Positions 7,544-13,852 of a DNA stretch of 64,000 nt are shown here, one piece after another; position 1 is the stretch's first letter, and each line of letters starts with the position of its first letter. Made by a program: the position numbers and the translations under genes. Source of the DNA: an uncultured Armatimonadota bacterium (GTDB lineage Bacteria > Armatimonadota > Armatimonadia > Armatimonadales > Armatimonadaceae); NCBI GenBank assembly GCA_903910385.1, contig CAIVZM010000024.1:1-64000 (forward strand). The letters run 5' to 3'. Under the pieces are notes generated by a model that saw only the letters and a program-made list of their open reading frames with translations, did not search any database and was not told the DNA's origin.

Positions 7544-8326
7544 ATGAAGACCGTAGAATACCGACTGAGTATTACACGATACGAGATAGAGGGGATACCT
7601 CTCTATGTCTACGCCCCGCTTGGGAATGACTCTTCTCAGGAGACCATTTCCGAAGTGCTCCCTCTTGTCGTCGTTCTGCACGGACTCAATTCGCGTAAGG
7701 AGAACCAGTTGGCGTTCTCTCTGCGTCTGGTAAATGCAGGGTATCGCGTCTGCACGCTGGATTTACGGGGTCACGGCGAAAGACGTAATGAAGATACTGA
7801 CTTCTTGCGCTTGCACTGGAGCGAACCGCAATTCGCGCCTGCAATCGGTCGGACAATCATCGGAAGCGTTCTCGATATCGTCTCTGTGGTTTCAGAATTG
7901 GGAGTAGACCGTTATTATATCGCTGGACACTCGCTGGGCGGGCACATCGCATTGTTGACAGCGCTCGAAGACCCACGAGCGTCCGCCGTCTGTTGTATCG
8001 GAGGCAGCCTGGATCTTTCCGCGTTGCCGACTGATCCTGATCGTCCTTCCGATGTCGTGGCGCGGTACGACCCGGTTCGACGGGCGGATGCGCTCGCCCG
8101 AAAAAAAGTCCTGCTTCTTCATGGCGTCGATGACGCTACAGTGCCGATTACCGGGGCTTGGCGCCTCTGGAATGCCATGGAAACGTCCGGTAATCTGTCT
8201 CTCCACAGCTTTTTCCGCACGTATCCGGGCATCGGGCATGAACTTGCTCCCGTCCTTATGCAGGACTGTATCGAGTGGCTGCTGGCGCTGAACTCCGATT
8301 CGACGCCGAACTTCGAGACGTTATAA
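7544..8326 (+). CDS. Alpha/beta hydrolase
   Basis: A 260-residue cytoplasmic serine hydrolase of the alpha/beta fold. The triad is visible: Ser in the nucleophile elbow IAGHSLGGH, Asp in LLHGVDDATVP and His in YPGIGHELAP. The oxyanion region is VVLHGLNSRK. The frame is open upstream to 7412 inside the previous gene. The ATG at 7544, preceded by CAGGGA, gives the expected N-terminus. It probably acts as an esterase or dienelactone-hydrolase-like enzyme. The substrate cannot be assigned. Confidence 0.8.
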   Translation: MKTVEYRLSITRYEIEGIPLYVYAPLGNDSSQETISEVLPLVVVLHGLNSRKENQLAFSLRLVNAGYRVCTLDLRGHGERRNEDTDFLRLHWSEPQFAPAIGRTIIGSVLDIVSVVSELGVDRYYIAGHSLGGHIALLTALEDPRASAVCCIGGSLDLSALPTDPDRPSDVVARYDPVRRADALARKKVLLLHGVDDATVPITGAWRLWNAMETSGNLSLHSFFRTYPGIGHELAPVLMQDCIEWLLALNSDSTPNFETL

Positions 8327-8413: not shown

Positions 8414-9595
8414 ATGAATCCAACATTACAGAGTTTTCTTCACGAGCAACTGGATACCCTCAAGGCGCAACATCTTTACAAGCCGCTTCTGACCGTCACT
8501 TCCGCGCCGGGCGCTCGGGTGACTGTGGATGGTCGTGAGATGATCAATCTCGCCAGCAATAACTACCTGGGGCTTGCTGGAGATGAACGCCTTCGTGAGT
8601 CGGCCGCAAACGCCGCCCGGCAATTCGGGGCGGGAGCCGGCGCAGTACGCCCGATTATCGGAAATCTGAAATTACACGATGATCTCGAGGATACGCTGGC
8701 GAAGTTCAAAGGGGTCGAAGCGGTGATGGTCTTTCAATCCGGCTTCACCGCAAATGCCGGTACGATACCCACAATCACCGATGCCGACGATGCGATCCTC
8801 TCGGATGAACTCAACCATGCCTCTATCATCGATGGTTGCCGCCTTTCCAAAGCGAAACGAATGGCGTACAAGCATTGCGACATGGACTCACTGGAAGACG
8901 CTCTGAAAGCGACTCAGGAAGCGAAGAAACGCCTTATTATCACCGATGGGGTGTTTTCGATGGATGGCGATATCGCCCCGCTGGATAAAATCTGCGAACT
9001 CGCGGACCGATACAATGCCGCTGTCATGGTGGATGATGCGCATGGCTCTGGCGTAATGGGAAAGAATGGAAGGGGCACTGCCTACCACTTCGGAGTCAAA
9101 GACCGTGTCGATATTCAACTGGGAACGCTTTCCAAAGCGGTAGGTGTGGTCGGGGGCTATATCGCTGGCTCCGCCGCCCTGAAAGATTTCCTGACACAGC
9201 GGGCGCGTCCGTTTCTGTTCAGCACCGGGGTTCCGCCTGCAGTCGCAGCCGCCTGTATCACGGCGATCGAAATCATGGAACGCGACGACTCACTGACCGA
9301 ACGATTATGGGACAATACCCGTTACTGGCAGAATGGCCTGAAATCGCTCGGCTTCGATACCGGTGTCACCCAGACACCGATCACGCCGGTGATCGTCGGC
9401 GATGAAGCCAAAGCGCAGGAATTCCAGAAGGAACTCCGTGCGCGTGATATCCTCGCCCTCGCCATCGTCTTTCCCACCGTCGCACGGGGAAAAGCCCGAA
9501 TCCGATCGATGCCCAACGCCTCGCATAGCAAAGCGGACCTCGACGAAGCCTTGACTGCTTTCGCCGCCGCCGGGAAACAACTGGGACTGATTTAG
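8414..9595 (+). CDS. kbl: Glycine C-acetyltransferase (2-amino-3-ketobutyrate CoA ligase)
   Basis: A 393-residue PLP enzyme of the alpha-oxoamine synthase family. It most likely condenses glycine with acetyl-CoA or runs the reverse step of threonine breakdown. Features include NLASNNYLGLAGD near residue 45, GAGAGAVRPIIGN, the PLP-facing DDAHGSGVMGKNGRG and the Schiff-base Lys in GTLSKAVG (about residue 241). 8-Amino-7-oxononanoate synthase (BioF) is a close relative. The overall pattern suits Kbl better, and no biotin gene or threonine dehydrogenase lies next to it, so the substrate is not fixed by context. Confidence 0.8.
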   Translation: MNPTLQSFLHEQLDTLKAQHLYKPLLTVTSAPGARVTVDGREMINLASNNYLGLAGDERLRESAANAARQFGAGAGAVRPIIGNLKLHDDLEDTLAKFKGVEAVMVFQSGFTANAGTIPTITDADDAILSDELNHASIIDGCRLSKAKRMAYKHCDMDSLEDALKATQEAKKRLIITDGVFSMDGDIAPLDKICELADRYNAAVMVDDAHGSGVMGKNGRGTAYHFGVKDRVDIQLGTLSKAVGVVGGYIAGSAALKDFLTQRARPFLFSTGVPPAVAAACITAIEIMERDDSLTERLWDNTRYWQNGLKSLGFDTGVTQTPITPVIVGDEAKAQEFQKELRARDILALAIVFPTVARGKARIRSMPNASHSKADLDEALTAFAAAGKQLGLI

Positions 9596-9605
9596 TGTGA
9601 AGCGG

Positions 9606-9611
9606 TATAAT
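9606..9611 (+). promoter_or_regulatory. -10 box TATAAT upstream of the 9630 gene pair
   Basis: A perfect TATAAT starts 11 bases after the kbl stop. It would give a short leader that still contains GGAGG at 9618-9622, seven bases before the ATG at 9630. The pair therefore appears to have its own promoter. Confidence 0.55.
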
Positions 9612-9629
9612 CCGCTCGGAGGCGCGGGT

Positions 9630-10238
9630 ATGTCAACGGTAGTGGAGTTCGCTCAGGAAATTACGGCCCCGATGAGCGTCATCGGGAATTGGCTCGACAA
9701 CGCCGAGACGAAAAACCGGGTGGAACGCCTGACGGCGGATTCTCTGACCGACCTCGAAGCCTTCATCTCCAATGATACAGACATTCTCCCGCCGCGTCAG
9801 GCGTGGGAGCGGGCCGATGGCTTCGCGGCGTGGCGGCAGAACTACGCGATTCGCCGCCTGAATCCGCATCTGCGCGAGAACCGCCGCCGCATCGTGGAGG
9901 AGTTGACAGCCGCCTTCCGCGCCTGGTACGACGACAAGACTCTGGATAGGGCGGTTCACAATCTCATTGAGCGTCTGGTCTGGTCGCCGCTGGAAGTCCG
10001 CCTACGCCAACGCGCTGAGGTGCTATTACTCGCCTACGCCGTTCGCTGCCTTGCCCTGATGTGGATAAGCGGGCATTTCGGCGAAGGGTTGGGCGTCGGG
10101 CAGCCGAAGCGGACGGAATCAGGTTGGCTCGTCCCCCTCGTGCGCCGCAAAACGGGCGAACCCGCCGGGACGCTCCCGCTGGACGAACAGGGCGAAATTC
10201 TCGTATCCCCCGCCGCGTTCCGGGAATCGTTGAAGTAA
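9630..10238 (+). CDS. Unknown protein coupled to a C39-like peptidase gene
   Basis: A 202-residue cytoplasmic protein of no family I recognise. Residues 1-135 are mainly predicted helical and rich in Arg and Glu, with an aromatic-rich stretch (AWERADGFAAWRQNY). A Gly-containing segment, GHFGEGLGVGQP, leads into a C-terminal part that looks like beta strands (GWLVPLVRRKTGEP onward). The start at 9630 has a strong GGAGG at seven bases. GTG 9597 is not needed. GC content is visibly higher than in neighbouring genes. Its stop is only five bases before the next gene, so the two are almost certainly co-translated and probably functional partners. Confidence 0.7.
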   Translation: MSTVVEFAQEITAPMSVIGNWLDNAETKNRVERLTADSLTDLEAFISNDTDILPPRQAWERADGFAAWRQNYAIRRLNPHLRENRRRIVEELTAAFRAWYDDKTLDRAVHNLIERLVWSPLEVRLRQRAEVLLLAYAVRCLALMWISGHFGEGLGVGQPKRTESGWLVPLVRRKTGEPAGTLPLDEQGEILVSPAAFRESLK

Positions 10239-10243
10239 CGCCC

Positions 10244-10708
10244 ATGATTGACGATTTCCCCCTCATTCGTCAGTCATCAGGTGAGAACGACTGTCTGCCC
10301 GCCGCCGTCGAAGCGATTTTGCTCTGGAACGGCGTTGCCGAATACTCCCGGACGGAAATCGCGCGAATCTGCCGCATGACCGAGGAAGGCTGCGCGTGGT
10401 ATGACGCGGTGGAGGGGTTGCGTGAACATTTCGACGTAGAAGAATTCCCCGCCTCGGACGCTGATACGCTCATGGATACCCTGTATGACGCGGTGGAAAA
10501 CGACGAGGAACCCGTCGCCGTCCGCATCGCTGTCGCGGATTTTGCGGGCGATATCTACGGTCATGCTGTCGTCGTGGTCGGCTTCGTCAATGAGGAGGAG
10601 ATTCGCTATATGGATCCGCTCCCCGGTCAATGGAGAACCCTCCCCCGCGCCGCCTTCCGTCAACGCTGGCTCCAGGGCGGCGGCTTCGCCCTGATCGTCC
10701 GACCGTAA
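10244..10708 (+). CDS. C39-like (papain-fold) cysteine peptidase-type protein
   Basis: A 154-residue protein with the layout of peptidase C39-like domains. The early Gln/Cys block IRQSSGENDCLPAAVEAIL puts the putative catalytic Cys near residue 17. A central His lies in YGHAVVVVGF, and an Asp/Pro turn follows in RYMDPLPGQW. There is no signal peptide and no fused transporter, unlike bacteriocin-exporting C39 proteins. It starts five bases after the unknown 202-residue gene and shares its GC-rich codon use. It could process a peptide or modify a protein, or act in a toxin or immunity pair with its neighbour. Catalytic activity is inferred from motifs only. Confidence 0.7.
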   Translation: MIDDFPLIRQSSGENDCLPAAVEAILLWNGVAEYSRTEIARICRMTEEGCAWYDAVEGLREHFDVEEFPASDADTLMDTLYDAVENDEEPVAVRIAVADFAGDIYGHAVVVVGFVNEEEIRYMDPLPGQWRTLPRAAFRQRWLQGGGFALIVRP

Positions 10709-10765
10709 CTTCAGATGCAGGGAGTCTTCGCCACCCCTATTACGCCCTAATTCGTGATGGGCATA

Positions 10766-10975
10766 CAGATTCCTCCGTTAGGTGTACTAATCTGGAGGTT
10801 GGGAGCGTTAATCCGGCAGTTGGGTTGTCTAACCTCGCCATTTGGTCAACTAATCTCTCCTGTGGCTTGCCTAATCTGTCTGTCGGGCCTCCTGCCCTCA
10901 CAGGCGAACGTCCTAATCTCCCTGCTGGATACTCTAATCTTGCCGCATGCTCCTCTTACATCACGGTTGAGGCAA
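10766..10975. repeat. Ten degenerate 21-bp tandem units
   Basis: Units begin at 10766, 10787, 10808, 10829, 10850, 10871, 10892, 10913, 10934 and 10955, all exactly 21 bases apart. The shared core is CTAATCT followed by a variable six and then a T/C-GG motif. In one frame the array reads as heptads of the form xxNLxxG. That frame has no convincing start codon or ribosome-binding site, so I treat it as a DNA repeat rather than a gene. It fills most of the 313-base gap after the C39-like gene, and nothing else is seen in that gap. Confidence 0.8.
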
Positions 10976-11021
10976 ATGAATTCCCGGATGGCTAAACTAT
11001 TTTGTTGTTTAACGTTCGTAT

Positions 11022-12501
11022 TCACGTCATTGGGCGAAATCCGCCGAAACCGGACACGGGAAGGCTACGCCTATAAGAGTATAGTTCGAGAATATCCCAT
11101 TTTTTCCATTCATCGAATGTTACATCCATAAGTGCGTATTCGTCCCATTTCTCCACAGGAAGTTTAGGATTCAAATCATGGTGAGCGTAGTGAAAACAAA
11201 GAAAGACGCCCCAATCTTCCTTCTGCAAAGGTAACGACACGGGATGGCGAATATGCCCGTTCATGCTTCGTGCCAACGCAAGGGGAAGTGAGGCAATACT
11301 ATTATCAGCGGGAACCCTAAAACCGTCAGACCATTCAAACACAGCCCAACTGTGCGGTGCTTTGTCAGGCCATCGGTCTTTGAAAGCGGAACCCCAACGT
11401 TGATATCCGCTTGTATTAAAGCATTTGATACCGAGTGCCGTTGCCAATTCCACAGTTGAATTGGTAAAGCCAGCGCATACACATTTTGCAACGTCCATCT
11501 TCAATATTCCCGTTGCTCTATAGTGTCTTTCACGTTCCTCAAGCGGAAGTTGCATATATTGAGGTGTGCCGTGAAACTTTGCCCAATCGTCATCGAAGGA
11601 AAAGTGTGTCCTGAGCCAATCGGAAATCGCCTGTGCTGTAAGTCGCTGTGCGAGAATTACGTTTGGTTTGAAGTCAAGATTTGTGATGACTTCATCCGCC
11701 GTAGCCTTGATACGTCGCGCTAAATCTCGAACCGCTTGCCCCGGCACATGGTCGAGGTCTGATTGAATCATTCTCCACGATATTTTATTCGTCGCATCTA
11801 TCAGGACGGCGTTGGAAACGCCGTATCCCTCATAAGTGTCATTTCTCACGCGGCTGTCCTTCGCGTTTTTCACCGCGAAATCTAGAAGGCGGCACTGATT
11901 CGCAGTAATTGGCGGCATGAAGCCATCTCTGTTATAGACAGGAGGCATTTTAGCAACGAACGCCATGTCGTCCACCATGATGTATCCTCGGTCGGCAGAG
12001 GCAGTGGCGTCCACGATTTCTATGTGCGCTTTCTTGCCCACAAACTCCGATACATCGAAGGAGGCGTCAGTCAGGTTAGGGGTTCCTTTGCCCGTTGCGG
12101 TACGGACTATCTTGCCGTCGACGATCAGGTTCATACACGCCTGATTCGGTGTGGTTGCCCCCGCCTATCTTGAAAATAAGAAAGGGTTTTTCGATAGTGA
12201 ACTCTTTGGAGGTTGCCTTGCCGATGGCGGCTGTGCCTTTCCGGGGATGCAGAGAGCAGAGGAAGCTGCGTCCGGTGAAACCCTTGATTTTGCCGGGGAA
12301 CAGGGCATCGGTGGCGGGAGCGGTTCAGAAGGCGTCGCCTTCGATGGTCCAACCGTCGTAGTTGCCCCCTTCAAAGTCGGCGAAGACTTCGGTTGTCGAG
12401 GCGGCGGTGGGCTTTAGTGCGTCCTGCGTGAAGGCTTTTCCCGTCGTCAGGGCGGTGGGCAGGAGTAGCGCGTTCTGTACAAATTGGCGGCGCGTGGGCA
12501 T
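11022..12501 (-). pseudogene. Broken Tat-exported transglutaminase-like protein
   Basis: The minus strand encodes a protein starting at 12501 with a twin-arginine signal (TRRQFVQNALLLP). A carbohydrate-binding-like segment follows (VFADFEGGNYDGW), and an in-frame TGA at 12325-12327 then replaces codon 59. Reading through, the frame continues in register (APATDALFPGKIKGF, then FTIEKPFLIFKIGGGNHTES) until a one-base shift near 12135. The remaining 370 codons are open. That distal part holds a transglutaminase-like triad: Cys in KCVCAGFTN, His in PHSWAVFEW and Asp in LMDVTFDEW. The distal frame has its own ATG at 12134, which looks fortuitous. Either the gene is decaying or the assembly has two errors. 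Confidence 0.75.
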
Positions 12502-12748
12502 TGTGATATGTCTTTTTCTCGTTAGTCGCTTTTCGTGAATTATACTGCAAATCTTTTCCTTTTCGTGTGGAGGGTGTCAGAGAGGGGGGATATCAATCAC
12601 GATTTCGCTCGTTGTGACAAGGTCGAATTCCGATATAAGCCGTCGCCGTGTCTCCGTCGCAAGCATGACATGAGCGACATTTTAATCTTGGAGCAGGAAA
12701 CGCGCGAGTCTAACGCCAAACCTTAACGGCGGAGGCAAGAAGAGAACC

Positions 12749-13852
12749 ATGCCGAAGTTTCGGTTTGCGATTGTTGGGTGCGGCGTTATTCATGGCACGC
12801 ACATTGATGCGATCAAGGCCCTGCCAGAGGAGGCGGAACTGGTCGCGGTCTGTGACGAAGATGCATCGCGGGCGACGTCCGCAGGGACCAAAAATGGCGT
12901 TCCCGCATTCACGGATTTAGCGACGATGCTGAAGGAAACGGATTTCGATATCCTTTGTGTCTGCGTCCCTTCCGGGCTTCATGCTAAAGTCGGAGTTATG
13001 GGCGCCAACGCCGGGAAGCATATCATCTGCGAAAAGCCGATTGATGTCTCTCTGGAAGCGGCGGATGCCCTGATAGACGCCTGCGCGAAAAACAGTGTTA
13101 AACTGGTCGTTATTTCCCAATCGCGTTATTCGACCGGGATGCGGAAACTCAAGCAGTATCTCGCCGAAGGTAAAATGGGAAATCTGTGTTACGCCGAATC
13201 GGTAACAAAGTGGTACCGGTCGCAGGAGTATTACGATTCGGGTGGCTGGCGCGGAACGTGGGAGCTGGATGGCGGTGGCGCATTGATGAATCAGGGCGTC
13301 CATTATGTCGACCAGTTACTGTACGCCATGGGTCCGGTAAAATCCGTCGCCGCGACCATGGCGACTCGTGCCCATGAACGTATTGAAGTGGAAGATATCG
13401 TCTCCGCGACCATCGAATTCGAAAGCGGCGCTGTAGGAACCCTCCTTGCCGCAACCTGCATGTATCCGGGCTACCGTCAAGGGTTGGAAGTATATGGTAC
13501 AGGAGGGACGGCGCTTATCGAGAACAACCGTATGCGTCATGCCCAATTCACCGATGGTACGGAAAAGCGCGGGATGTTCGGGGTAGAAGCGAAAGAGCCA
13601 GAAATCAAGGATTTCAAGGCGCAGGGTGCAGAAACCGAGGAGAATTCCGGCGGGACGCACGGCGCCAGTGACCCGACCGCAATCGAACTCAACGGTCATG
13701 TCGAGCATTTCAAAGACCTGATCGGAGCGATCGCCGAGAATCGGGATACCTTTATGAACGGCAAAGAAGCGCGGAACGCTCTGGAATTGATTCTGGCGGT
13801 CTATCAGTCCGCTCGTTCCGGTCAAAGAGTTTACCTTCCACTGTCTGAATAA
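12749..13852 (+). CDS. Gfo/Idh/MocA family oxidoreductase
   Basis: A 367-residue NAD(P)-dependent oxidoreductase. The Rossmann fingerprint is IVGCGVIHGTH at residue 8. The family's EKPIDVS motif follows near residue 95, with CEKP giving the Lys that contacts substrate and cofactor. The C-terminal half is the usual open beta-sheet domain, with GGALMNQGVHYVDQLLY carrying the conserved His. Such enzymes oxidise or reduce sugar or inositol derivatives. The substrate is not predictable here. A GGAGG lies about 13 bases before the ATG. The gene is divergent from the broken transglutaminase-like gene across 247 bases, in which I see no other gene. Confidence 0.85.
   Translation: MPKFRFAIVGCGVIHGTHIDAIKALPEEAELVAVCDEDASRATSAGTKNGVPAFTDLATMLKETDFDILCVCVPSGLHAKVGVMGANAGKHIICEKPIDVSLEAADALIDACAKNSVKLVVISQSRYSTGMRKLKQYLAEGKMGNLCYAESVTKWYRSQEYYDSGGWRGTWELDGGGALMNQGVHYVDQLLYAMGPVKSVAATMATRAHERIEVEDIVSATIEFESGAVGTLLAATCMYPGYRQGLEVYGTGGTALIENNRMRHAQFTDGTEKRGMFGVEAKEPEIKDFKAQGAETEENSGGTHGASDPTAIELNGHVEHFKDLIGAIAENRDTFMNGKEARNALELILAVYQSARSGQRVYLPLSE

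What the first reader, a model, noticed from the sequence alone, without database searches (positions are those of the whole stretch)
9630..10708. Coupled pair: unknown protein plus C39-like cysteine peptidase in a GC-rich patch
The two genes are five bases apart, share unusually GC-rich codons and have their own TATAAT and GGAGG. The second has Cys, His and Asp in C39-like positions but no signal peptide or transporter. The first is unrecognised. Small coupled pairs of an unknown protein and a papain-fold enzyme are a typical layout for toxin/antidote, effector/immunity or peptide-processing systems. This is the strongest candidate here for an undescribed two-gene system.
Basis: partly seen in the sequence, partly recalled or inferred. 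Interest (0 to 1): 0.6.

Follow-up and report, generated by a model that had tools for sequence, protein, structure and literature searches.

The report
Two-gene cysteine-protease and partner module
A small cytosolic cysteine protease is encoded directly behind a partner protein whose end domain accompanies this protease in two bacterial phyla; it looks like an undescribed poison-and-antidote style gene pair, but no toxicity has been shown.

Summary
The pair is real: A (9630-10238, 202 aa) and B (10244-10708, 154 aa) are five bases apart and have the highest GC3 among the window's larger ORFs. B has a C39-peptidase fold (model pLDDT 91; PDB matches 3erv, PCAT1, ComA), with Gln10, Cys17, His107 and Asp124 invariant in its close family. 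A matches no library, but its last 75 residues are a domain ('P') that sits beside B-type peptidases elsewhere in Armatimonadota and in Candidatus Poribacteria, including loci held out of both profiles. The rest of the partner varies: AbrB-like strands in the nearest relatives, about 125 mostly helical residues here. In a tree, 15 of 16 P-linked B proteins group together. The pair lies in a 3.15-kb segment between two genes that are adjacent in three same-family genomes. Copies are patchy, often several per genome, frequently decayed: seven loci have intact P with broken B, one has P alone, none has intact B without P. Best explanation: a mobile protease-antidote (toxin-antitoxin-like) module in which P restrains B. 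Conservation and catalytic machinery are shown; toxicity, inhibition and target are inferred. Rivals: A is B's regulatory substrate, or B is a non-toxic processing/transfer enzyme.

The parts
9606..9622 (+). TATAAT (9606-9611) and GGAGG (9618-9622) ahead of A; no good -35 box
   Evidence: sequence; promoter scan
9630..10238 (+). gene A, 202 aa partner protein
   Evidence: no hit above a curated cut-off in Pfam or NCBIfam and none in PHROGs or PADLOC
9630..10010 (+). variable N-terminal part of A, mostly helical, low-confidence model; similar only to the orphan in G008
10011..10235 (+). conserved P domain of A (helix, strands, helix), shared with the partners of B in other genomes
   Evidence: profile A5: 80.9 bits in the window; alignment; model pLDDT about 80-94
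10244..10708 (+). gene B, 154 aa C39-fold cysteine peptidase, no visible signal peptide
10271..10273 (+). Gln10 codon (candidate oxyanion-hole Gln)
   Evidence: invariant
10292..10294 (+). Cys17 codon (candidate nucleophile)
   Evidence: invariant
10562..10564 (+). His107 codon
   Evidence: invariant
10613..10615 (+). Asp124 codon
   Evidence: invariant
9596..12748 (.). segment between the aminotransferase-family gene (8414-9595) and the Gfo/Idh/MocA oxidoreductase (12749-13852), which are adjacent in G011, G012 and G013; it holds A and B

Best explanation
A-B is a horizontally moving, toxin-antitoxin-like protease-antidote module. Gene A comes first and is translated ahead of B by coupling. 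Its conserved C-terminal P domain binds B and keeps the C39-fold cysteine protease inactive; its variable N-terminal part (AbrB-like in sister loci, helical here) would provide dimerisation, DNA-binding autoregulation, sensing or instability. When A is lost or degraded, B would cut one or a few cellular proteins and slow growth. Shown: conserved pairing, modular partner, C39 fold and catalytic residues, insertion relative to kin, asymmetric decay. Inferred: binding, inhibition, toxicity, target, autoregulation.
For: P is next to B in every locus of the B group, in two phyla, including held-out loci L090, L126, L127, L128, L130, L131, L132 and L136. P-linked B proteins group in a tree, 15 of 16. 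Catalytic Q/C/H/D invariant and fold C39. Decay is asymmetric: 13 intact pairs, 7 P intact with B broken, 1 P alone, 0 B intact without P, 2 both broken. Two to four copies in several genomes and patchy occurrence. Empty site in three same-family genomes and deviating GC3. Partner is first and coupled, with an AbrB/MazE-like N-terminus in four relatives. A papain-like protease with a neighbouring inhibitor that cleaves GyrB and ParE is known: Cpe1-Cpi1 (PMC12136450).
Against: No toxicity, binding or inhibition data. P resembles no known antitoxin; the AbrB likeness is weak statistically (best MazE E=0.019). In L050 the order is reversed, with B first. Counts are small, partly from related loci, and MAG frameshifts may inflate decay. 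No PADLOC match.
Confidence: 0.48

Rival explanations
1. Regulated-proteolysis switch: A is the substrate or cofactor of B. B cleaves A, for instance separating the N-terminal effector or DNA-binding part from P, and so changes regulation; B is not harmful.
For: The partner is modular, with AbrB-like N-termini in some relatives; C39 domains are site-specific processing peptidases, as in PCAT1 and ComA.
Against: No conserved cleavage-site motif such as Gly-Gly is apparent between the N-terminal part and P in the alignments. Several partners have almost no separate N-terminal domain. Broken-B loci that keep P would have no obvious use for it.
Confidence: 0.22
2. B is a non-toxic processing or acyl-transfer enzyme of a small metabolic or peptide pathway, and P is its structural cofactor.
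For: Papain-fold relatives include non-proteases: CtaG and phytochelatin synthase are among the fold matches.
Against: Flanking genes differ from locus to locus and include unrelated housekeeping genes; no shared pathway is seen. Sequence-profile matches go to C39 peptidases first.
Confidence: 0.15
3. Secreted effector-immunity pair used against other cells, with A as the immunity protein.
For: Fold matches include a papain-like toxin/immunity pair (9l5u) and a CDI toxin (8ssm). A Tox-PL-C39 class is described in PMC3482391.
Against: B is stand-alone with no delivery domain or visible signal peptide. In most Cpe1 loci the immunity gene follows the toxin (PMC12136450); here the partner gene comes first.
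Confidence: 0.08

Closest known systems
C39 peptidases (ComA and PCAT1 peptidase domains; Pfam PF03412/PF13529)
   Same: Fold, catalytic Gln/Cys/His/Asp pattern and sequence profile
   Different: B is a stand-alone cytosolic protein without ABC transporter or double-glycine substrate nearby, and has the P partner
Cpe1-Cpi1 papain-like protease toxin and immunity protein (PMC12136450)
   Same: Small papain-fold protease with a neighbouring small partner gene
   Different: Cpe1 is tied to T6SS/CDI delivery and its immunity gene usually follows; here no delivery part, partner first, partner has a conserved domain with swapped N-termini
Type II toxin-antitoxin modules with AbrB/MazE-type antitoxins (PMC2701414)
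   Same: Two small coupled genes, partner first, modular partner with AbrB-like N-terminus in relatives, patchy and multi-copy
   Different: No C39/papain toxin is found by the term search of that survey; toxicity untested
Staphopain-staphostatin
   Same: Papain-fold protease with a dedicated small protein inhibitor encoded beside it; staphopain is among the fold matches
   Different: Staphopain is a secreted enzyme with a propeptide (own knowledge); no evidence that P has the staphostatin fold
PepSY domains
   Same: Predicted helix-plus-strands layout and a last strand like 'vDaeTGevl'
   Different: Similarity is not significant enough for membership (Pfam E=0.068 in one member; hhalign probability 5%)

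Membership tests
C39-like peptidase (B) | C39/papain fold | tested here: met
   model pLDDT 90.9; PDB matches E to 2e-7; family profile finds PCAT1 at 4e-13
C39-like peptidase (B) | Gln, Cys, His, Asp catalytic residues | tested here: met
   Q10, C17, H107, D124 invariant in nine relatives
C39-like peptidase (B) | Pfam curated cut-off | tested here: inconclusive
   window B 23.4 bits against 24; relatives L008, L010 and L011 pass
C39-like peptidase (B) | proteolytic activity | not testable with these tools
   needs purified enzyme
Bacteriocin ABC exporter peptidase | fusion to ABC transporter and a double-glycine leader substrate | tested here: not met
   B is 154 aa, a single C39 domain; no transporter among the scanned neighbours
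Type II toxin-antitoxin system | two adjacent coupled small genes conserved as a unit | tested here: met
Type II toxin-antitoxin system | DNA-binding domain on the partner | tested here: inconclusive
   AbrB/MazE-like strands in four relatives, best E=0.019; profile of that part hits only weak PDB matches; none recognised in window A
Type II toxin-antitoxin system | toxin inhibits growth, partner neutralises it | not testable with these tools
   only indirect: no intact B found without P
PepSY domain (P) | significant profile match | tested here: not met
   Pfam E=0.068 in one member; hhalign probability 5%, P-value 0.008, shuffled controls up to 0.9%
AbrB/MazE swapped-hairpin (partner N-terminus) | significant profile match in window A | tested here: not met
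   no such match in A; only weak match in L009
Polymorphic toxin / effector-immunity | delivery domain or secretion signal on the toxin | tested here: not met
   B is a single domain starting MIDDFPLIRQ

The most novel reading that the evidence does not exclude
A new class of intracellular toxin-antitoxin (or abortive-infection) module whose toxin is a C39-fold cysteine protease and whose antidote is a new small inhibitor domain, P, combined with interchangeable sensing or DNA-binding ends. Release of the protease by degradation of, or sensing through, the variable end would make it a proteolytic stress or anti-phage switch.
Probability: 0.35. Interest if true: 0.75.

Novelty: new variant of a known kind. 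Interest (0 to 1): 0.5.

Why it matters
Cytosolic toxin-antitoxin modules are mostly nucleases, translation blockers or modifying enzymes (own knowledge). A recurring one with a C39-fold protease and a dedicated inhibitor would add a proteolytic class and a new protease-inhibitor domain. It gives a compact two-gene test object from poorly studied phyla: one Cys mutant and one co-expression would decide the main question.

Tried and rejected
A single-protein pattern scan of genome contigs with B found no relatives. An apparent A homologue in G254 is a different frame of unrelated genes. C39 proteins in viral contigs L067 and L068 have no P partner. tblastn with relatives' B found nothing in plasmids or phages. 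The P alignment was too diverse for a pattern scan. Fold search with A gave no significant match, and the P profile hit no PDB sequence. Lower-scoring C39_2 hits in both phyla, including lipoprotein-like L133, have no P neighbour and were set aside as ordinary. UreF (E=0.12) and Cas10/Csm1 (E=0.19) matches of A are noise. Literature searches found no described C39-AbrB or C39 toxin-antitoxin pair, in an open-access library only.

Full report
Observation. Genes A (9630-10238) and B (10244-10708) lie on the + strand with five bases between them. They have the highest GC3 among the larger ORFs of the window (0.762 and 0.708 against 0.566 +/- 0.039). TATAAT and GGAGG precede A; B has no visible ribosome-binding site of its own and no convincing -35 box exists for the pair. 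Both genes are single copy in the genome, which belongs to Armatimonadota, judged by the record titles of the same-phylum relatives.

B. Pfam C39_2 scores 23.4 bits against a cut-off of 24; relatives L008, L010 and L011 pass curated C39 cut-offs. Gln10, Cys17, His107 and Asp124 are invariant in nine relatives. The AlphaFold2 model (pLDDT 90.9, pTM 0.88) matches 3erv, PCAT1, ComA, staphopain and a papain-like toxin/immunity pair. The family profile finds PCAT1 at 4e-13 by sequence alone. B is therefore very probably an active cysteine peptidase, or a closely related acyl-transfer enzyme, in the cytosol.

A. No library recognises it above a cut-off. Its last 75 residues form a domain, P, predicted with pLDDT of about 80-94 as a long helix, strands and a helix. 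Its first ~125 residues are poorly predicted, mostly helical, and resemble only a protein in G008. P is faintly PepSY-like, but membership is not established.

Pairing. The four closest B relatives, found by B similarity alone, all have an adjacent or overlapping upstream gene with P but with AbrB-like strands in place of A's N-terminus. A B profile then found further strong members, and each had P beside it; in L050 P is downstream. A P profile searched against 291 Armatimonadota genomes returned, as its strongest hits, the same loci plus G055 (in neither profile) and an orphan in G008. In the phylum of the Candidatus Poribacteria hit (85 genomes), strong B hits in G291, G305, G307 and G309, and degraded ones in G296 and G313, carry P next to B. 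A maximum-likelihood tree of 50 C39 domains puts 15 of 16 P-linked proteins in one group (89/77) and the window with the AbrB-type pairs (95/91); L050 lies elsewhere. The window's own branch is long, so its exact place is unsure.

Mobility and decay. The upstream gene (8414-9595; 73-77% identical in kin) is followed about 27 bases later by an orthologue of the window's 12749-13852 oxidoreductase in G011, G012 and G013, so 9596-12748 is an insertion in the window's lineage or a loss in theirs. Elsewhere the pair lies between carA-like and carB-like genes (L013), within a glutamate-synthase-like cluster (L127) and beside PIN-like genes (L015, L128); these neighbour names are by-eye identifications. 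Several genomes hold two to four copies. Of 23 loci examined, 13 pairs are intact, 7 have intact P and broken B (L054, L090, L091, L129, L130, L132, L136), 1 has P alone (G008), 2 are broken in both (L051, L135), and none has intact B with missing or broken P. If breaks fell evenly per residue, eight of eight on B would have a chance of about 1% (0.56^8, own arithmetic), but relatedness and MAG errors weaken this.

Mechanism. Partner translated first, coupled expression, a modular partner, mobile and patchy distribution, and loss of the enzyme before the partner are what a toxin-antitoxin-like protease-antidote module would leave. P would bind and restrain B; free B would cut cellular protein(s). 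Cpe1, a papain-like protease that cuts GyrB and ParE and has a neighbouring inhibitor (PMC12136450), shows that such chemistry can be toxic. Binding, inhibition, toxicity and target are inferences. Main rivals are A as B's regulatory substrate, B as a non-toxic transfer or processing enzyme, and a secreted effector-immunity pair, which the lack of any delivery part makes unlikely.

Known or new. B is a member of the C39 fold family by tested criteria. The two-gene unit is not recognised in Pfam, NCBIfam, PADLOC or PHROGs, and no paper found describes it. I rate it a new variant of a known kind. Sampling covered two phyla; how far the pair extends beyond them is unknown.

Noticed in passing
window 10760-10960: Degenerate 21-bp-period repeat just downstream of B (autocorrelation 0.54 at 21 and 0.47 at 42; shuffles at most 0.39), with CTAATCT at 10787, 10850, 10871, 10913 and 10934 and nowhere else in the window. 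Tandem Repeats Finder misses it.
   Followed up: partly
window 11022-12500, minus strand: A transglutaminase-core-like gene (Pfam E=0.016) whose upstream part, starting MPTRRQFVQNALLLP with a twin-arginine-like leader, lies in another frame with a stop inside, so the gene looks broken. It shares the segment with A and B.
   Followed up: partly
L016 (G008:C2) 7580-8251, minus strand: An orphan relative of A (about 31% identical, including the helical N-terminus) in a same-family genome, with no B in the 16 kb read around it.
   Followed up: yes
L050 2213-3219 and L091 150-660, minus strand: A second arrangement: B first, then a P protein with a different C-terminal tail, in a separate B lineage; L091 keeps P with only a remnant of B.
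   Followed up: partly
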